64,000 bases of DNA from Betaproteobacteria bacterium (GTDB lineage: Bacteria > Pseudomonadota > Gammaproteobacteria > Burkholderiales > Burkholderiaceae_C): NCBI GenBank assembly GCA_025356445.1, contig JANXSZ010000015.1, positions 1-64,000 of the forward strand, written 5' to 3'. Position numbers and translations under genes: made by a program. A model generated the notes under the pieces. It was given only the letters and a program-made list of their open reading frames with translations. It made no database searches and was not told the DNA's origin. Shown one piece after another: positions 40,580 to 48,434 of this stretch; position 1 is the first letter of the stretch; each line of letters opens with the position of its first letter.

Positions 40580-40716
40580 TGGCCTTGATTGGGGGCAAGG
40601 GTTTCGCATCGGTTAGGCAGCCATCAGGCATCACCACCGTACATTTACGCATAAAACTGCGCTGGTTTTTGGGGTAGCCTGTGGGGCCTGATTCTGCACA
40701 ATAACTGGAGATTTTG

Positions 40717-43019
40717 ATGAGCAGCCAACCCCTGTCCCCCGCTGAAGAATCCTTGCGCGACGCAGCCCGCGAATACCACTGCACCCCCACCAAGGGAAAA
40801 ATCTCGGTCAACGCGACCAAGCCACTGTCCAACCAGCGCGACCTGTCGCTGGCCTACTCCCCTGGCGTGGCCTACCCCTGCCTGGACATCCAGCGCGACC
40901 CGTCCCTGGCGGCCGAATACACCTCGCGCGGCAACCTGGTCGGCGTGATCACCAACGGCACGGCCGTGCTGGGCCTGGGCAACATCGGCCCGCTGGCCTC
41001 CAAGCCGGTGATGGAAGGCAAGGGTTGTTTGTTCAAGAAATTCGCCGGTATCGATGTGTTCGACATCGAACTGGCCGAGAACGACCCCGACAAGCTGGTG
41101 GACATCATTGCCGCCATGGAACCCACCCTGGGCGGCGTGAACCTGGAAGACATCAAAGCGCCCGAATGCTTCTACATCGAGCAAAAGCTGCGCGAACGCA
41201 TGAACATCCCTGTGTTCCACGACGACCAGCACGGCACGGCCATCATCTCGTCCGCCGCCCTGCTCAACGGCCTGGAGCTGGTGGGCAAGAAGATCGAAGA
41301 CGTGAAGGTGGCGGTATCGGGTGCCGGAGCCGCAGCCATCGCCTGCCTGGACGTGATGGTCGGCCTGGCGTGCAGCGCAAAAACATCTTCGCCTGCGACT
41401 CCAAGGGCATCATCTACCAGGGCCGCCCCGGTGGTTTTGACGCATCCAAAGAGCGCTACGCCCAAGACACCTCGGCCCGCACGCTGGCCGACGCGGTCAA
41501 CAACGCCGACGTGTTTTTGGGTTGCTCTGCCGCCGGTGTGCTGACCGCCGAGATGGTCAAGACCATGGCCGCCAAGCCCATCATCCTGGCGCTGGCCAAC
41601 CCCGAGCCCGAAATCCGCCCCGAACTGGCCAAGGCCGTGCGCCCGGATTGCATCATCGCCACTGGCCGCTCGGACTACCCGAACCAGGTCAACAACGTCC
41701 TCTGTTTCCCGTACATCTTCCGCGGCGCACTCGACTGCGGTGCAACCAAGATCACCGAAGCCATGAAGCTGGCCTGCGTGCGCCAGATTGCCGACCTGGC
41801 CAAGGCCGACATCAGCGAAGAAGTGGCCAGCGCTTATGCAGGCAAAGAACTGTCGTTCGGGCAGGACTACATCATCCCCACGCCATTCGACTCGCGCCTG
41901 ATTTTGCGCATCGCCCCAGCTGTCGCCAAAGCCGCGCAAGAGTCCGGCGTGGCAACCCGCCCCATCGCTGATCTGGAAGCCTACCGCCAGCACCTGACAC
42001 GCTTTGTCTACCAGACCGGCATGATCATGCGCCCCGTGTTTGAGACCGCCAAAGCCGCCACCGCCAAGCGCGTGGCCTACGCTGAAGGCGAAGACGACCG
42101 TGTTCTGCGCGCGGTTCAGCTGGTGGTGGACGACAAACTCGCTCACCCGATTTTGATTGGCCGCCCTGCGGTGATCGAAGCCCGCATCGCCAAAGCGGGC
42201 CTGCGCATCAAGCTCGGCGTTGATGTGGAATGCGTCAACCCCGAAGATGACCCGCGCTTCCGCCAGTACTGGGAAACCTACCACCGCATCATGGGCCGCG
42301 ATGGCGTGACCCAAGAGACCGCCAAATCCATGGTGCGCCGCTCGAACACGCTGATTGGCAGTTTGATGCTGCACTTGGGCGATGCCGATGCGTTGCTGTG
42401 CGGCTTGGTCGGTCAGTTTGACGCGCACTTGAAGCATGTGCAAGACGTGGTGGGCCGTGCCAAGGGCTCCACCGGCCTCGCCACCTTGAACGCCATCCTG
42501 ACGGAAAAGCAAACCCTGTTCATCGCAGACACCTACGTCAACGAAAGCCCCGACGCCGAGTTGCTCGCCAGCATCGCCGTGATGGCCGCTGACGAGGTAC
42601 GCCGCTTTGGTTTGCCACCCAAGGTCGCGTTTTTGTCGCACTCGAACTACGGCTCAAGCAGCCGTACCAGCGCCAAAAAGATGCGCCTGGCCCGCGACCT
42701 GTTCGCCCGCATGGCACCCGATGTGGAATGCGACGGCGAACTGCAAGGCGACTCAGCCTTATCAGAAGAAGTCCGTACCGCCAGCCTGTCGGACAGCACG
42801 CTGACGGGTGAGGCCAACATCCTGATTTGCCCCAACCTGGACAGCGCCAACATCCTCTTCAACGTACTCAAAATCACCGATGGTCACGGCGTGACGATTG
42901 GGCCGATTTTGCTGGGTGCAGCCGCATCGGCGCACATCCTGACACCCTCGGCTACCGTGCGCCGCGTGGTGAACATGACGGCACTGGCCGTGGCTGATGC
43001 GGTGGCTAAACGAAAGTAA
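40717..43019 (+). pseudogene. maeB: NADP-dependent malic enzyme with phosphotransacetylase-like domain, interrupted by a one-base frameshift
   Basis: Frame 1 runs from ATG 40717 (GGAG upstream) through the malic domain, including [26 protein letters not shown] and the NAD(P) motif [15 protein letters not shown]. Just after, at about 41367, a run reads GGCCTGGCG where the protein requires GGCCTGGGCG. The correct frame resumes as [14 protein letters not shown] to 43019. That second part gives the rest of the malic domain and a full C-terminal PTA-like domain ([16 protein letters not shown]). Restoring one G would give about 768 residues, the usual MaeB length. Flanking sequence on both sides is well preserved, so this is either a very recent mutation or a sequence error. 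Reaction of the intact enzyme: malate to pyruvate plus CO2 with NADPH. Confidence 0.9.
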
Positions 43020-43153: not shown

Positions 43154-44262
43154 TCACCACTTGCGCCCCCGGCTGCCCCGCACCCCCAGCAGCCCCATCA
43201 AGCCCACCAGCAACAGCAAGCTCCACTCGCTCAACGTGGGTACGTTCGTCACACCCCCGGCACCAATGGGGCCGACAGGCACGCCGGGGCCACCGGGGTC
43301 GGCGATGAAACCGGCCCGTGCATCACTGTCACCCGCGCCGCCATCGGTGATGCTGAACGTGATCTGGTTGCCACTGATGGTGGCCGCAAACACATACCAG
43401 TGCGGCGTGGCATTGCCCGGCTCGCTACCGTATTTGTAGTACTGCGTGCCCGCTGGCAGGGCTTGCGGGTAGGTCAGCGTGAAGTTCAGGGTGCTGGCCG
43501 CACCGCAATCCGTGGTGGTAAAGGCAAACACGCCGTGCGGCATCGTCACGCCCGCAGGTGGGCTGGCAGGGGCGGCCTGAAACTGCGACGTGGCGTAGGC
43601 ACAACCCGCACCACCCCCCGTGAAGCTGGCCGTCTCGCTGCCTGTGCTGGTGGCCGTGGCGGCGGTATAGCTCTTGGACGAAGCCAGGGAATCAAAAGGG
43701 GCAAAAGACTGTCCGCTTCGCACGAGGCGAACATAGAAGGAATACGTCTTGTTGTCGGCGTAGGAGTAGCCGCTGACGAAGTTGACGAACCACGCGCTAC
43801 TCGGGAAAGGCGCATAAGTAGTGGATGACCAGAATGCATCCGAAGGCGTGGCAGGAAAGGCCGTGCTGTCGATGGCGGGGCTGTTGGTGGCGAGATTGAC
43901 CAGCGATTCCAGCTCGTTCTTGTTGGGCACGCGCCAATCGTTAAAGCCCTTGTAGCTGATGGCGTTGGCCGCTGTGGCTCTGGTCAGTGCATTGGCCCAC
44001 GTGCCGTAAAACGCGGTGCCTGTGGCACAGGTGCTGCCACCAAGGCCATAGGCGCATTGGTCCCAGACCAGAGGGTGGTGCTGTCGGTCACGGTGCCATT
44101 GCCTGCATTGACGCTGAGTGCCGCCCCCGCAGGCAGAGGCAGAGTCAATCCGAGACTGAAAACCAAGGCGGCAGTAGCAGCAAGGCGTTGACCGTGGTGG
44201 GTAGGCAAGGGCAGGGGAATAGGCTGAGGAATAGGCAGGGGCAGGGGAACAGAGGGCTTCAT
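43154..44262 (-). pseudogene. DGR target protein 1: DUF1566 variable domain with IPTL-CTERM anchor, interrupted by a frameshift
   Basis: The ATG at 44262 opens a signal peptide (RLAATAALVFSLGLTLPLPAGAA) and ALSVNAGNGTVTDSTT. At about 44073 the frame must shift by one base to continue LVWDQCAYGLGGSTC and the DUF1566 domain (NDWRVPNKNELESLV, FWSSTTYAPFPSSAWFVNF). The variable repeat VR1 encodes the end of that domain (residues about 150-184 of 369). A choice-of-anchor-like beta domain follows, then the sorting tail VPTLSEWSLLLLVGLMGLLG with a basic RGSRGRK end (IPTL-CTERM). Restored, it would be an exported surface-displayed C-lectin-like protein. It starts 3 bases after the reverse transcriptase stop. 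The missing base may be real or a sequencing error. Confidence 0.85.
43712..43813 (-). repeat. DGR variable repeat VR1 (102 bp)
   Basis: This segment aligns without gaps to the template repeat at 45857-45958. There are 14 mismatches, and every one falls on an adenine of the template (sense strand); no difference occurs at any of the other 70 positions. The last 24 bases (TATGTTCGCC to GAAGCGGA in sense) are identical and form the initiation-of-homology end. Translated, the template's Asn-rich PNPSNAWIVNFNN becomes PFPSSAWFVNFVS. Confidence 0.97.
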
Positions 44263-44265
44263 GGC

Positions 44266-45879
44266 TCAGGCTTTCGAAGGTGGGGGCGTGAAGAGAAAAG
44301 ACGGGCGAGAGAGGGAATTCACAGCGGAGGCTGAAAACCACACCGCTGTCAGCGTGCGTTGTTTAAAGCCGGTTTTAAAGTGCCCGGTTTGGCTGACCAC
44401 TTGGTGGGCCATACCGCGCAACTTGAGGCACTGGCGCAGCAGCGGCAAAGCGGCCAAGGGCCACTCGGTACACGGCCCCAGGCTGGGGCGCTGCACCGTG
44501 CGGCCTTTGGGCAAACCCACTGGGCAAGGCCCTGCGAGCATCCAGTTTTTACCCACCTGCATCAAAATGCAGGTGCTGGGGTAGCGGGCGGCAAAGTAGG
44601 CATGCTGGTCAACCAAGTTGCTGACCTCACGGGGCGACCAGCGCACCGCCTGCAGGCGAGGGCTGTGCTTGGACAGGGCAAACAACTGCGCCAGCCACGG
44701 GTGCCGCGCCTGCGTGCGCTGCCACAGGCGTTGGCTGTCGGCATGGCGCAAATGGGCGGTGTAGCTGCTGAGCTGAGCACGCAGGGCTTCCCGGGCGACT
44801 GGGGGCAACTCAATGGCATGGCCGCGCACATGCAGTCGCTCAAAGCCGCGCAAGCAAGTTTGCAGGCGTTTAACGACACGACGGCGGGCCAGGCGGTAAA
44901 AAGGCCGTGTGACGTAGCCTAAAAAATCAGTGCCTTGCTGCAAAGCATGCGGCTCAGCCAGCGCTTTGAGCCGCAGCCCCAGCCGCTCAGCCAAAAAAGC
45001 CACGATCTGCCCACGCCACACCTGCAGTTGCGCCGGGTCGGTGTGCAGCAGCACAAAATCATCCACATAGCGCACGTACCAGCGGGCTTTGAGCTGGTGT
45101 TTGACGAACTGGTCCAGCTCGTTCAGGTAGACGTTGGCAAAAAACTGGCTGGTCAGGTTACCAATGGGCAGGCCCACGCCCGCCCCTTGGGCACCCAGGC
45201 GCTTGTGAGGCGGCACCTGCTCAAAAATACGGGCGCTGCCCCGGCGACGCACGCCCACGGTAGGGTCCACCGTCAGCAGGGCGCGGCAATGGGTTTGCAG
45301 GGCAGCAGCCTCGTCGCTCGCCAGCTTGCCGCCCCGAACAGCACGGCTCAGGCGGTGTTGCAGCAGGCGAAACAAAGTGGGGCGGTGGATGCTGTTGAAG
45401 AAGTTGGCAATGTCGAGTTGCAGCGCATAAGCCGTCTGTGTACCGCCCGCGCTGGCTTGGCGCATGAAGCCTTGCAGGCGGTCTACAGCAGCGTGGGTGC
45501 CTTTGTTCAAGCGGTTGGCATACGAATCGTGGACGAACACCGGCTCGTAAAGGCGTGCCAAGCGCTCTACCAGCACATGGTGAACCACCCGGTCTGCAAA
45601 GGGTGCGGCGTGGATTTCGCGCAGCTTGGGGCGCGACACCACAAAGGAATAGGTGCGGGAGGGGCGCCAGCTTCTGCTGGCTAAAGCGTCTCGGCTGTGA
45701 ACCAGCTTGTTGAGCAAACTGGCCTCGTAGGCCTGGGTGTCACGGGACGATCGTTTACCTTTGCGGCAGGCCCGGTAGGCCCGCCACAGGGCGTGCAGAC
45801 CAAAGGGGGGCACTTGTGGTACGCCCTGGCCTGCGGGTTTGCCCGTTCGTTCACGCTCCGCTTCGCACGAGGCGAACAT
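44266..45879 (-). CDS. DGR reverse transcriptase
   Basis: Up to 537 residues. RT motifs: LQLDIANFFNSI (catalytic Asp156), the DGR-type GLPIGNLTSQFFANVYLNELD at 236-255, the catalytic YVRYVDDFVLL (Asp273, Asp274) and TDFLGYV (about 317). The IGNLTSQ block and neighbouring VRs/Avd place it firmly among DGR enzymes, which copy TR RNA with adenine errors and drive retrohoming into VR. The start is uncertain: ATG 45879 lies inside the TR, and GTG 45813 is an alternative giving VPPFGLHALWRAYR. A tail beyond residue 405 (DQHAYFAARYPSTCILMQVGKNW) resembles the opening of MutS domain I. The frame stays open upstream to 46185 but without family resemblance. Its stop is 3 bases before target gene 1. Confidence 0.95.
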   Translation of the reverse strand: MFASCEAERERTGKPAGQGVPQVPPFGLHALWRAYRACRKGKRSSRDTQAYEASLLNKLVHSRDALASRSWRPSRTYSFVVSRPKLREIHAAPFADRVVHHVLVERLARLYEPVFVHDSYANRLNKGTHAAVDRLQGFMRQASAGGTQTAYALQLDIANFFNSIHRPTLFRLLQHRLSRAVRGGKLASDEAAALQTHCRALLTVDPTVGVRRRGSARIFEQVPPHKRLGAQGAGVGLPIGNLTSQFFANVYLNELDQFVKHQLKARWYVRYVDDFVLLHTDPAQLQVWRGQIVAFLAERLGLRLKALAEPHALQQGTDFLGYVTRPFYRLARRRVVKRLQTCLRGFERLHVRGHAIELPPVAREALRAQLSSYTAHLRHADSQRLWQRTQARHPWLAQLFALSKHSPRLQAVRWSPREVSNLVDQHAYFAARYPSTCILMQVGKNWMLAGPCPVGLPKGRTVQRPSLGPCTEWPLAALPLLRQCLKLRGMAHQVVSQTGHFKTGFKQRTLTAVWFSASAVNSLSRPSFLFTPPPSKA

Positions 45880-45958
45880 AGTTGGAATTCGTCTTGTTGT
45901 TGGCGTTGGTGTTGCCGTTGTTGAAGTTGACGATCCACGCGTTACTCGGGTTAGGCGC
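45857..45958 (-). repeat. DGR template repeat TR (102 bp)
   Basis: This sequence is the invariant template for VR1 and VR2. It contains 32 adenines on the sense strand, mostly as AAC codons; its translation has 11 Asn in 25 residues (WIVNFNNGNTNANNK). AAC codons cannot mutate at A to a stop, a hallmark of DGR templates. It lies between avd and the reverse transcriptase gene. Its downstream flank (sense GCGTGAACG) differs from that of both VRs (CAGT), which may distinguish TR from VR as in IMH*/IMH. The possible RT start codon lies within it. Confidence 0.96.
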
Positions 45959-46181
45959 TTGGGCAGGGGGTGCCCGCTGGCGTTTGCCCCACCCTTCGGC
46001 CAATCCGAATCATCGCTCTGGCGCTTCGTGCCACGGGCAAGCCTTGCAGGCTTGTCCGCTGGCTGCACACCACCCATCCTTTCAGTAGGGTGGCGCACCT
46101 CCTCATGCCCCTTCGCCACGTTGGGCCTGGGCCCTGTGGGTGGTGGGCGGCCAGGGCGCACAGTGAACTGCGGCACGCTTC
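45959..46181 (-). ncRNA. Spacer between avd and TR, probable 5' part of the TR RNA
   Basis: 223 bases without a convincing gene. Characterised DGRs make an RNA covering TR and its flanks that the reverse transcriptase and Avd bind, so this stretch probably belongs to that RNA. It is GC-rich, and the part next to avd (46185-46300, reaching into the avd end) looks like the short dispersed repeats common in Comamonadaceae genomes. I saw no clear promoter. The boundaries are inferred. Confidence 0.4.
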
Positions 46182-46640
46182 TCATCTGTCAGGCCCCCAC
46201 GCTCCACCGCTTCGCGGGTCGCTACCCCCTGAGGGGACTGCGGCCTCGCTTGGCGCGGTCCAGCGCATCGGCCCAATGGGGTGGAATTCAGGCCGCACCC
46301 GACGCCGCCACCCCCCGCTCTGTTTGCCGAGGTTGACGGTGAGTTCCGTCGCCCCAGCGAATTCGTTGAAATTAGAAAAAGCTTTGGTCTCTTGGGCCAA
46401 AGTCAACAAGGTTTTCATCTCTTCCACGGCCAGCACCAGTTCGTCCAGCGCTGACCAGCGCGCTTCGCTCTGGGCATTGTTGGCACGCGCCACCAAGCGG
46501 CACAGGCGTTGGGCCAGGTGCCGCAGCTCGGTGCCCAAGGTGTATTTGTGGTAGCGCGGGAAGCGGCGCACGGCGTTTTCCAGGTGAACAGCCAAGTCCA
46601 GGGCGGCTTTCCAGACAGGCAAGTGGCGGTAATGGGCCAT
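46182..46640 (-). CDS. avd: Avd-type DGR accessory protein (four-helix bundle)
   Basis: A 152-residue basic protein starting MAHYRHLPVWKAALDLAVHLE. Helical segments follow: YTLGTELRHLAQRLCRLVARANNA, ALDELVLAVEEMKTLLTLAQE and FNEFAGATELTVNLGKQSGGW. This is the S23/bAvd four-helix-bundle pattern. Avd forms a pentamer that binds the reverse transcriptase and TR RNA and is required for mutagenic cDNA synthesis in the Bordetella phage DGR. Avd proteins are usually 110-130 residues; here the last ~30 residues (from about HPIGPMRW) look like read-through of a dispersed repeat. The first 22 bases of the gene also occur at 47247-47225, on the far side of an inserted toxin-antitoxin module. The present start has no good ribosome binding site. 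Confidence 0.9.
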   Translation of the reverse strand: MAHYRHLPVWKAALDLAVHLENAVRRFPRYHKYTLGTELRHLAQRLCRLVARANNAQSEARWSALDELVLAVEEMKTLLTLAQETKAFSNFNEFAGATELTVNLGKQSGGWRRRVRPEFHPIGPMRWTAPSEAAVPSGGSDPRSGGAWGPDR

Positions 46641-46641
46641 G
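46619..46641. repeat. 23-bp direct repeat, copy 1 (avd start, left edge of brnTA insertion)
   Basis: Identical over 23 bases to 47225-47247. It includes the avd ATG and its first six further codons in antisense (plus strand GCAAGTGGCGG...). Homology ends sharply on both sides. Confidence 0.95.
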
Positions 46642-46655
46642 GGATAAAATGTCAC

Positions 46656-46669
46656 ATTGTTAGTACAAT
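46656..46669. promoter_or_regulatory. Palindrome in the brnT promoter (probable autoregulatory operator)
   Basis: ATTGTTAGTACAAT has ATTGT/ACAAT arms around a TAGT centre and ends 7 bases before the brnT ATG. The BrnT-BrnA complex is known to repress its own promoter, so this is the likely binding site; it overlaps the expected -10/transcription start. Confidence 0.6.
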
Positions 46670-46676
46670 AAAAAGA

Positions 46677-46955
46677 ATGCAGATAAATTTCGACCCGGAT
46701 AAAAACTGGCGCAATATCCGCGACAGGGCGATTTCGTTCGCGAGCGCTGCTGATTTCGATTTTTCTACGGCCAAAATTTGGCAAGACACTCGTCGCCCCT
46801 ATCCTGAGATACGCTTTTTGGCGGTGGGTTACCTGGCGACACGCTTGCATGTGCTGTGTTTTTGCGACACACAACCCAGCATTCGCGTAATTAGTTTTCG
46901 TAAAGCCAACCCGCGTGAAGGAGCAAAGCATGGTTTCCCGCTTACCCGTGATTGA
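46677..46955 (+). CDS. brnT: BrnT-family toxin
   Basis: A 92-residue protein starting MQINFDPDKNWRNIRDRAISF. The BrnT family opening (FxWDxxKxxxNxxKHGISF) is recognisable, as are DFDFSTAKIWQDTRRPYPEIRFLAVGYL and the C-terminal RVISFRKANPRE. BrnT is a RelE-fold ribonuclease that inhibits translation. The ATG at 46677 gives the family opening; the longer upstream frame overlaps avd in antisense and is rejected. The end overlaps brnA by 26 bases. It is opposite in direction to the DGR genes and sits between avd and the VR2 target. Confidence 0.9.
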   Translation: MQINFDPDKNWRNIRDRAISFASAADFDFSTAKIWQDTRRPYPEIRFLAVGYLATRLHVLCFCDTQPSIRVISFRKANPREGAKHGFPLTRD

Positions 46956-47211
46956 TGAAGATGGTGAGGTGAGTGACCTCTCCGAAGTGGATGCAACACT
47001 GTTTCGTCCTGCGCATGAAGTGCTGCCCCTCAGCCTGCAAACCAGGCTGGGCATGACCCCACGGGGGCCGCAGAAAGCGCCGACCAAGGTGGCGACCACC
47101 ATTCGCTTGTCGCCGGACGTGGCGCAAGCATTTAAAGCCAGTGGACGCGGCTGGCAAACCCGCATTGACGCGGCATTGAAAGACTGGCTTCGCACGCACT
47201 CGCCCGTGTAG
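46930..47211 (+). CDS. brnA: BrnA-family antitoxin
   Basis: A 93-residue protein. The C-terminal DNA-binding part is visible in ATTIRLSPDVAQAFKASGRGWQTRIDAALKDWL, matching the BrnA motif LSPEVxxxFKAxGxGWQTRINxAL. The acidic N-terminus (DEDGEVSDLSEVD) probably neutralises BrnT. The ATG at 46930 has GAAGGAG at ideal spacing; a GTG at 46915 is in frame. The overlap with brnT means translational coupling. The gene ends 13 bases before the second 23-bp repeat. Confidence 0.92.
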   Translation: MVSRLPVIDEDGEVSDLSEVDATLFRPAHEVLPLSLQTRLGMTPRGPQKAPTKVATTIRLSPDVAQAFKASGRGWQTRIDAALKDWLRTHSPV

Positions 47212-47224
47212 ACCGTGCAGCGGC

Positions 47225-47247
47225 GCAAGTGGCGGTAATGGGCCATG
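47225..47247. repeat. 23-bp direct repeat, copy 2 (right edge of brnTA insertion)
   Basis: Second copy of the avd start region. In antisense it reads as an ATG plus MAHYRHL codons 35 bases after the VR2 gene stop, where avd should begin. The reading frame stays open from here through the brnTA region in antisense into avd, but that 354-codon frame is an accident of the insertion. Confidence 0.95.
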
Positions 47248-47281: not shown

Positions 47282-48016
47282 TTACTGTCCGCTTCGCACG
47301 AGGCGAACATAGAAGGAATCCGTCTTGTCGTAGGCGCCGGAGTTGCCGTCGTCGAAGTCGACGATCCACGCGACACTCGGGTCAGGCGCATAGGTATCGC
47401 TTGTCCAATACACATAGGCCTGGGTCGCAGGAAAATAGTTCACATCAATCCTGGGCTGCGCGTAGTCCGTCAATCCGTTGTGAACGAGGCTGAGTAACTC
47501 GCGGCGCGTGGGCAGCCGCCAGCCGCTGCTGAAACCACAGCGGCTGACCGCATTGGTGGCCGTGGGCAGCGTGCTTTGGGCATAGGTCGTCCAGTCGCCC
47601 TGCCCGGTTTGCAGTGACCACACGAGGTTGGTGACGTTGTCTTTGGTGCAGGCCCAGGCGCTGCTGCTGGCTGAGTTGGCCGAGGTGTCCCCGGTGGTGG
47701 CACTGGCACAGCTGCTGCCGTCCATGCAGATTTTGCTGAAATCAAAGCCTGCGGCACCGCCGCCGGTTTTGGTGGGGGTGGCCACGTCGCGGCCAAAGCG
47801 GGCGTCCTGGCGGGGCATGGCAGAGGCGTCGCCCGTGTTGGCGGTGGCGCAAGTGGCCAGCACATTGCTGCCGTTGTCGCACTGGGTCAGCCCGGTGTCG
47901 TTGAGCAAACCGGTGGGGCCTGCGGCGTGGGCATGGCCCAGTGCCCCGGCCAGCGCGAGGGCGCAAAGCGGTGCAACAAGGCGCGAAACAGCAGGGAAGC
48001 GAAAAAGTGCGGGCAT
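47282..48016 (-). CDS. DGR target protein 2: secreted DUF1566 variable protein
   Basis: A 244-residue protein. Signal peptide: MPALFRFPAVSRLVAPLCAL then ALAGALGHAHAAG. The mature part has DTGLTQCDNGSNVL, DARFGRDVA, CTKDNVTNLVWSLQTGQGDW and the DUF1566 (Lcl-type) core WRLPTRRELLSLVHNG and YWTSDTYAPDPSVAWIVDF. The last 34 residues are VR2, so the variable residues are at the extreme C-terminus, the typical DGR layout on a C-lectin-like/FGE fold. No anchor is seen, so it may be secreted or held by disulfides. The ATG at 48016 is the one giving a signal peptide; the frame continues upstream without support. Confidence 0.9.
   Translation of the reverse strand: MPALFRFPAVSRLVAPLCALALAGALGHAHAAGPTGLLNDTGLTQCDNGSNVLATCATANTGDASAMPRQDARFGRDVATPTKTGGGAAGFDFSKICMDGSSCASATTGDTSANSASSSAWACTKDNVTNLVWSLQTGQGDWTTYAQSTLPTATNAVSRCGFSSGWRLPTRRELLSLVHNGLTDYAQPRIDVNYFPATQAYVYWTSDTYAPDPSVAWIVDFDDGNSGAYDKTDSFYVRLVRSGQ
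47288..47389 (-). repeat. DGR variable repeat VR2 (102 bp)
   Basis: Gap-free alignment to the TR at 45857-45958 with 14 mismatches, all at template adenines. The pattern differs from VR1: across the two VRs, 19 distinct adenines of 32 are altered at least once. The encoded peptide reads PDPSVAWIVDFDDGNSGAYD. The gene's stop codon follows two codons after the conserved LVRSG. Confidence 0.97.
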
Positions 48017-48210
48017 GGCAGGAGGCTCCAAAAGAGAAAAACCGCCCGCCGCTAAAAAGCGAGGGGCGGCATGGCGACCGGGGACAGGGTGGAATAACAA
48101 TGCGGCGGCGGCGCACAGAGCGCCGAAAAGCGGGAACGGGAAAACTTGTGAGGGTGGCGTGTGCGGCTGCGTACCGCAGGCGAACACCCGTGCCGGGCAA
48201 CGGCTAGATG

Positions 48211-48275
48211 GCTTGGCTTGGCTTGGCTTGGCTTGGCTTGGCTTGGCTTGGCTTGGCTTGGCTTGGCTTGGCTTG
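48211..48275. repeat. Pentanucleotide tandem array, 13 x GCTTG (CAAGC on the minus strand)
   Basis: Thirteen perfect 5-bp units with no interruptions, followed by GCAAG. The array lies 195-259 bases upstream of the VR2 target start codon, in the presumed promoter or leader of the DGR cassette. Long perfect short-unit arrays change length by slippage. Confidence 0.97.
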
Positions 48276-48434
48276 GCAAGGATGATGCGGGGAAAATCAC
48301 GGAGCGATGCGTCAGTTGGGTCACATTATTTTGTCCTTGATCGTACGTTACTTTGGCGCTGCCGCTTGTGTTTGTGTTTGTGATTTATTTACATTCCAGA
48401 TGGCTCTGAGGCCGAGCACAAAACCAAACCCGCG

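What the first reader, a model, noticed from the sequence alone, without database searches (positions are those of the whole stretch)
43712..43813. VR1 lies in the middle of an IPTL-CTERM surface protein rather than at the C-terminus
In target 1 the variable segment is followed by about 185 further residues: a choice-of-anchor-like domain and an IPTL-CTERM sorting tail. Most described DGR variable regions are at the extreme C-terminus, as in target 2 here. The cassette therefore diversifies one anchored surface protein with an internal variable patch and one secreted protein with a terminal patch.
Basis: partly seen in the sequence, partly recalled or inferred. Interest (0 to 1): 0.7.

Follow-up and report, generated by a model that had tools for sequence, protein, structure and literature searches.

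The report
Retroelement mutates middle of anchored lectin
A bacterial gene-diversifying retroelement rewrites a patch in the middle of a lectin-like protein whose tail is a tag for surface sorting; the same layout recurs in relatives of other genera together with the matching sorting enzyme, although this genome's copy carries a reading-frame break that may switch it off.

Summary
VR1 (43712-43815, minus strand) differs from TR (45857-45960) at 15 positions, all adenines in TR. The open frame runs on for 184 residues through a choice-of-anchor U domain and an IPTL-CTERM tail, both above curated cut-offs. The genome encodes the matching exosortase XrtH, and this target is its only recognisable IPTL-CTERM client. 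AlphaFold2 gives VR1 a confident C-type-lectin (Lcl-CTD) fold; diversified residues 99, 104 and 110 align with lysines that bind glycosaminoglycans in Legionella Lcl.

New points: (1) The layout T2(terminal VR)-avd-TR-RT-T1(internal VR) recurs in five other loci; XrtH is present wherever T1 is seen to end in IPTL-CTERM and absent where T1 ends otherwise. (2) Six further relatives have a VR followed by a ~30-residue PEP/VPLPA/IPTL-like tail, all with an exosortase. (3) A ~20-nt motif after the VR is shared by T2's untranslated region and T1's coding sequence, a likely retrohoming element inside a gene. (4) A GCCRA repeat precedes T2 in five of six loci.

Main correction: in this assembly T1's signal peptide is in another frame than the lectin domain. 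New variant of a known kind.

The parts
43154..44341 (-). Target 1, frame of Lcl_C to IPTL-CTERM (395 aa open; homologous coding starts at about 44071)
43984..44262 (-). N-terminal part of target 1 (signal peptide, GTVTDSTT) in another frame; frame break at about 44072-44080
43718..44080 (-). Lcl_C (C-type-lectin fold) domain of target 1
43712..43815 (-). VR1, internal variable region
   Evidence: 15/15 differences at TR adenines
43688..43711 (-). Gln codon plus the 21-nt T-rich motif shared with the target 2 untranslated region; here coding (QSFAPFD): presumed retrohoming element
43280..43558 (-). choice-of-anchor U domain
   Evidence: NF041766, E 1.3e-28
43163..43243 (-). IPTL-CTERM sorting tail
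   Evidence: TIGR04174
44266..45849 (-). DGR reverse transcriptase (IGNLTSQ, YVRYVDD)
45857..45960 (-). TR, template repeat
46182..46640 (-). avd
   Evidence: bAvd PF22296 over its cut-off; 72% identical to Avd of L054
47288..47391 (-). VR2, terminal variable region
   Evidence: 15/15 differences at TR adenines
47282..48187 (-). Target 2 (ATG probably at 48016; signal peptide by eye; Lcl_C ending two codons after VR2)
48209..48277 (-). GCCAA x13 repeat array upstream of target 2, possible expression switch

Best explanation
This is a chromosomal diversity-generating retroelement with two targets. The RT, helped by Avd, copies the TR RNA with errors at adenines; the cDNA replaces VR2 at the end of target 2 and VR1 in the middle of target 1. 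Target 1 is built as signal peptide - C-type-lectin (Lcl_C) domain with VR - choice-of-anchor U domain - IPTL-CTERM tail: exported by Sec, then processed by the exosortase XrtH, which puts a lectin with a variable binding face on or near the outer surface. VR1 can sit in the middle because the short DNA motif after the VR, which in target 2 lies in the untranslated region, is embedded in target 1's coding sequence as QSFAPFD. Shown: adenine-specific TR/VR pairs, domains, XrtH, recurrence in relatives, shared motif. Inferred: retrohoming activity, motif function, export, sorting, ligand binding. In this genome as assembled a frame break parts the signal peptide from the lectin domain, so this copy may at present be silent, or the break may be an assembly error.
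For: TR/VR1 and TR/VR2 15/15 at adenines; RT, bAvd, Lcl_C, choice_anch_U and IPTL over or near curated cut-offs; XrtH present with target 1 as sole recognisable IPTL client; same order and internal VR in L054, L055, L056, L071, L072; XrtH present with IPTL tails and absent in G353 whose T1 has none (base rate 36/299); xrtH next to T1 in L071; post-VR motif identity 9-16 of 21 against 5.7 expected; lectin fold pLDDT 80-97, Z 11.6 to Lcl-CTD; VR1 positions 99, 104, 110 match Lcl ligand lysines.
Against: The signal peptide is out of frame in this assembly and the T1 of the closest relative is also interrupted. No activity data. No stem-loop after the VR. One genome (L055) has an internal VR without an IPTL tail, so sorting by XrtH is not a condition for internal VRs.
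Confidence: 0.72

Rival explanations
1. Target 1 of this genome is a decaying gene. The frame break is real, the lectin and tail are no longer exported, and the DGR now serves target 2 only; VR1 is an idle acceptor.
For: Signal peptide and lectin domain in different frames while five homologues read through. Few clear in-gene breaks in 464 kb, so general assembly noise is low. L071's target 1 is also interrupted.
Against: The nearby malic enzyme gene is broken too, which suggests a locally poor assembly. The 395-codon frame shows no further lesion, and VR1 pairs cleanly with TR.
Confidence: 0.4
2. The motif shared by T1 and T2 after the VR is only a trace of paralogy (T2 once had a tail like T1), not a retrohoming element.
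For: T1 and T2 are paralogues. Lcl_C pairs without a nearby RT also keep the motif in part (L066, L067).
Against: T2's copy is untranslated, yet is kept in five loci from different genera. Pairs lacking a close VR match have lost it (L068, 6 of 21). Such an element is expected there from known DGR biology (PMC12875486).
Confidence: 0.3
3. Target 1 is cut by XrtH and released into the matrix rather than anchored, so the lectin acts as a secreted diversified agglutinin.
For: Exosortases cut their clients, and the fate after cutting is poorly known (general knowledge). One IPTL-CTERM protein was identified as the S-layer protein of Methylomirabilis (PMC8671808), so extracellular assembly is possible.
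Against: Name and position of the choice-of-anchor domain; no direct evidence either way.
Confidence: 0.3
4. The frame after VR1 is not translated, and VR1 in effect ends the protein.
For: None found.
Against: No stop for 184 codons, two domains above cut-off, coding-like codon use, and homologous tails in L054, L056 and L071.
Confidence: 0.02

Closest known systems
Cellular DGRs with Lcl_C/DUF1566 (C-type-lectin) targets (PMC4159848; Roux et al. 2021, PMC8144416)
   Same: RT, Avd, adenine-rich TR, VR at the end of a C-type-lectin domain, exported targets
   Different: In those surveys the VR is at the protein's C-terminus; here one target goes on for 184 residues to an exosortase sorting tail
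IPTL-CTERM / exosortase H (XrtH) sorting system (TIGR04174, TIGR04177)
   Same: Tail and enzyme both over curated cut-offs
   Different: The single recognisable client in this genome is a DGR target; no such link found in the searched papers
Tentaclins (phage proteins, PMC10743442)
   Same: Lectin domain, in some members DGR-mutated, placed before a C-terminal anchoring domain
   Different: Phage proteins with Ig-like anchor to the virion; not exosortase-sorted
Legionella DGR target displayed as a surface lipoprotein (title of Arambula 2013, cited in PMC8144416)
   Same: DGR lectin displayed on a Gram-negative surface
   Different: Lipoprotein rather than C-terminal sorting tail; details from general knowledge, not tested here
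Legionella Lcl C-terminal domain (8q4e, PMC11162425)
   Same: Same fold; its ligand-binding lysines align with VR1's diversified positions
   Different: No DGR is mentioned in that paper; domain at the C-terminus of a collagen-like stalk

Membership tests
Diversity-generating retroelement | TR/VR pair with substitutions confined to TR adenines | tested here: met
   15/15 for VR1 and 15/15 for VR2
Diversity-generating retroelement | RT with the DGR-type IGxxxSQ motif and YxDD | tested here: met
   IGNLTSQ invariant among the five aligned RTs except one T/N change, YVRYVDD; RVT_1 E 9e-13
Diversity-generating retroelement | Accessory protein Avd | tested here: met
   PF22296 42.0 bits against a 40-bit cut-off; NF033474 at 37.9 is under its cut-off of 80
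Diversity-generating retroelement | VR in a C-type-lectin fold | tested here: met
Diversity-generating retroelement | Identical short end of TR and VR (IMH) differing just beyond | tested here: met
   21-nt identical end, then CAG in VRs and GCG in TR
Diversity-generating retroelement | Stem-loop directly after the IMH (Bordetella phage type; not universal) | tested here: inconclusive
   No structure better than shuffles; a shared T-rich motif instead
Diversity-generating retroelement | VR at the C-terminus (usual, not defining) | tested here: not met
   Met by target 2; target 1 has 184 further residues
Diversity-generating retroelement | Mutagenic retrohoming in cells | not testable with these tools
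   needs populations or an assay
IPTL-CTERM protein sorted by XrtH | C-terminal IPTL motif, TM stretch and basic tail | tested here: met
   TIGR04174 36.7 bits against 20.5; helix 280-296
IPTL-CTERM protein sorted by XrtH | XrtH in the same genome | tested here: met
   223 bits against 86
IPTL-CTERM protein sorted by XrtH | N-terminal signal peptide in frame with the tail | tested here: not met
   Other frame in this assembly; in frame up to the VR and beyond in L056, L066, L071 and L072
midcut-by-XrtH protein (NF033207) | Whole-protein score over cut-off | tested here: not met
   29.3 bits against 45; only the tail matches
Group II intron RT/maturase (TIGR04416) | Whole-protein score over cut-off | tested here: not met
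   82 bits against 300
[quoted passage not shown]
   Only the order lectin-then-anchor was compared, from PMC10743442

The most novel reading that the evidence does not exclude
A family of chromosomal DGRs in proteobacteria works as a display module: a lectin with a retroelement-mutated face carries an exosortase sorting tail behind the variable region (IPTL with XrtH, or PEP-CTERM-like tails with EpsH-type exosortases). The retrohoming element has moved into coding sequence to allow this, in one genome the exosortase serves this target alone, and a GCCRA repeat array may switch the operon on and off.
Probability: 0.4. Interest if true: 0.75.

Novelty: new variant of a known kind. Interest (0 to 1): 0.58.

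Why it matters
Surveys place DGR variable regions at protein ends and explain this by the need for untranslated retrohoming DNA next to the VR. Here the same kind of motif appears both untranslated (target 2) and inside a gene (target 1) of one cassette. That makes the idea directly testable by synonymous recoding, and suggests that internal sites can be diversified, which is of use for DGR-based protein engineering. It also links DGRs to exosortase surface sorting; no paper in the searched open-access library mentions the two together (that library lacks most subscription journals).

Tried and rejected
Rejected: the frame after VR1 being untranslated (domains and homologues contradict it). 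Genome-wide assembly noise as the plain cause of the frame break is unlikely, since only two clear breaks were found in 464 kb; but both are 2.7 kb apart, so local error stays open. No slippery sequence of the classic -1 type was seen by eye at the break. Looked for a stem-loop after the VRs: none better than shuffles. Looked for a further VR elsewhere in the genome: Lcl_C matches only in the two targets and TR. PF09721 does not detect XrtH; TIGR04177 does. phmmer of target 1 against PDB sequences found nothing; the profile found 8q4e. No other genome of the same genus is held for comparison. Phage records give only weak RT similarity, no sign of a prophage cassette. No structural match was obtained for the part after residue 122; it was not searched on its own. 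In the survey reading frames were chosen by a rule, and one long-tail row (L122) is doubtful; the loci were found through their RT, so the 16 internal cases are not a population rate.

Full report
What is there. The cassette lies on the minus strand of a 3.95-Mb genome (99.8% complete; window = G000:C3:1-64000). In reading order: target 2 (47282-48187), a brnT/brnA pair on the other strand, avd (46182-46640), TR (45857-45960), RT (44266-45849) and target 1 (down to 43154). TR against VR1 and VR2 shows 15 differences each, all at TR adenines. TR has AAC/AAT codons at 11 of 34 positions; such codons cannot mutate into stops at the adenines, so the lack of stops in VR1 says nothing about selection.

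The tail after VR1. Target 1's frame goes on for 184 residues with a choice-of-anchor U domain (E 1e-28) and an IPTL-CTERM tail (E 4e-9), both above curated cut-offs. AlphaFold2 gives the lectin domain pLDDT 80-97 by blocks of ten, the linker and anchor domain low to middling confidence, and a helix at 280-296 for the tail.

Sorting enzyme. The genome has one XrtH (TIGR04177, E 4e-66). Its sequence shows GCNGVEA, NVLRI and FAHSY, which I take as the Cys, Arg and His active-site segments from general knowledge of exosortases. A genome-wide scan for IPTL-CTERM finds target 1 and nothing else over cut-off. So the enzyme's only recognisable client here is the DGR target; clients with unusual tails may be missed.

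Structure and function of VR1. Target 1's lectin domain matches the Legionella Lcl C-terminal domain (Foldseek rank 1; Z 11.6, 99 residues, 2.6 A), with eukaryotic C-type lectins below it. Target 2's model gives the same top hit. In Lcl, K369A, K380A, K385A and K391A reduce glycosaminoglycan binding, whereas D386A has no effect (PMC11162425). In the alignment, Lys380, Lys385 and Lys391 fall on target-1 positions 99, 104 and 110, all AAC/AAT codons in TR; Asp386 falls on position 105, which TR cannot diversify. The chance of three given positions all landing on the 11 AAC/AAT codons among 34 is about 3%. This supports, without a direct accessibility calculation, that VR1 lies on an exposed binding face.

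Relatives. Among 399 genomes of the family, 11 including this one have a related RT. The closest held elsewhere is a Rhodoferax MAG (L071, RT 75% identical). In L054, L055, L056, L071 and L072 the order T2-avd-TR-RT-T1 is kept; T2 ends at its VR, while T1 continues for 243 or more residues (L072 is cut by the contig end, and L071's count stops at a frame change). T1 ends in IPTL-CTERM in L054, L056 and L071. L055's T1 has DUF4214 and no IPTL, and its genome (G353) is the only one of these without XrtH; own, G212, G225, G399 and G400 have it, against a base rate of 36 of 299 in the family. In L071 xrtH follows T1 on the same contig (6230-6769).

Wider survey. In 77 DGR loci found through their RT, 133 TR/VR pairs were recovered; 115 VRs have tails of 25 residues or fewer. 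Sixteen distinct VRs have longer tails: the six above; L057, L077, L083, L086, L087 and L116, where the VR is followed by about 30 residues resembling PEP-CTERM, VPLPA-CTERM or IPTL-CTERM (over cut-off for L077, L087 and L116, weaker for the others); and L095, L097, L098 and L102 with other long tails. All six genomes of the second group have an EpsH-type exosortase.

A motif after the VR. Directly after the shared VR end, T1 and T2 share a T-rich motif (own: CAGTCTTTTGCCCCTTTTGAT and CAGTAATTTTCTCCTTTTGAT) that TR lacks. Over 21 bases after the CAG codon the identity between T1 and T2 is 15, 13, 16, 15, 13 and 9 in six loci, against 5.7 +- 2.2 for random pairs. In T2 it is untranslated; in T1 it encodes QSFAPFD or similar. 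Roux et al. 2021 propose that VRs are terminal so that such elements can be intergenic; here it appears to have been accommodated in coding sequence. That it is a retrohoming element is inferred. No stem-loop of the Bordetella phage kind is predicted; the reconstitution paper finds that element helpful but not strictly required (PMC12875486).

The frame break. Target 1's signal peptide and first residues (MKPS...GAALSVNAGNGTVTDSTT) are in a different frame from LVWDQCAYG..., whereas L056, L064, L066, L071 and L072 read through this junction in one frame. The malic enzyme gene 2.7 kb away is broken in the same manner. A codon-usage scan of 464 kb of this genome found no other equally clear case. 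A local assembly error and real gene decay both remain possible. L071's target 1 is interrupted too, at other places.

A repeat array. A GCCAA array of 13 copies lies about 190 bases upstream of target 2's start; GCCRA arrays of 7-19 copies lie upstream of T2 in L055, L056, L071 and L072 too, and almost nowhere else in what was scanned. A slipped-strand expression switch is a reasonable guess and is untested.

Verdict. No earlier description of exosortase-sorted DGR targets was found in the searched library, which is incomplete.

Noticed in passing
48209-48277; also L055 11028-11062, L056 5643-5682, L071 345-439, L072 6110-6154: GCCRA pentamer arrays (7-19 copies) upstream of target 2 in five of six loci of this DGR group. 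It is the only array of 5 or more pentamers in 464 kb of this genome, and the other DGR loci scanned (1.19 Mb) have none apart from one 4-copy GCGCG run. A phase switch for the DGR operon is a guess.
   Followed up: partly
46619-47247: A brnT/brnA toxin-antitoxin pair on the opposite strand sits between target 2 and avd, flanked by a 23-bp direct repeat (46619-46641 and 47225-47247) that duplicates avd's start; in L071 the two genes adjoin without it.
   Followed up: partly
40714-43019: The malic enzyme gene (malic, Malic_M, PTA_PTB) is split by a frame break near 41367, 2.7 kb from target 1's break.
   Followed up: partly
L066 7856-10721, L068 7390-9302, L064 4732-9233: Pairs of a T2-like and a T1-like gene lie side by side without a nearby RT; L066 still shows VR-like agreement and the post-VR motif. 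They may be orphaned DGR targets or the state before the DGR core came between them.
   Followed up: partly
L067 4527-8588: A single 1354-residue open frame holds two Lcl_C domains in tandem, whose VR-like ends agree at 83 of 100 bases; no RT was found in that genome's search.
   Followed up: no
L095, L097, L098, L102: A second group of DGRs has VRs followed by long tails (586 and 1168 residues in L097 and L095; L098 is cut by the contig end and L102 runs into masked sequence), again in the target downstream of the RT, with GGTTATTT-like repeats after the VR of the targets in L095, L097 and L098.
   Followed up: no
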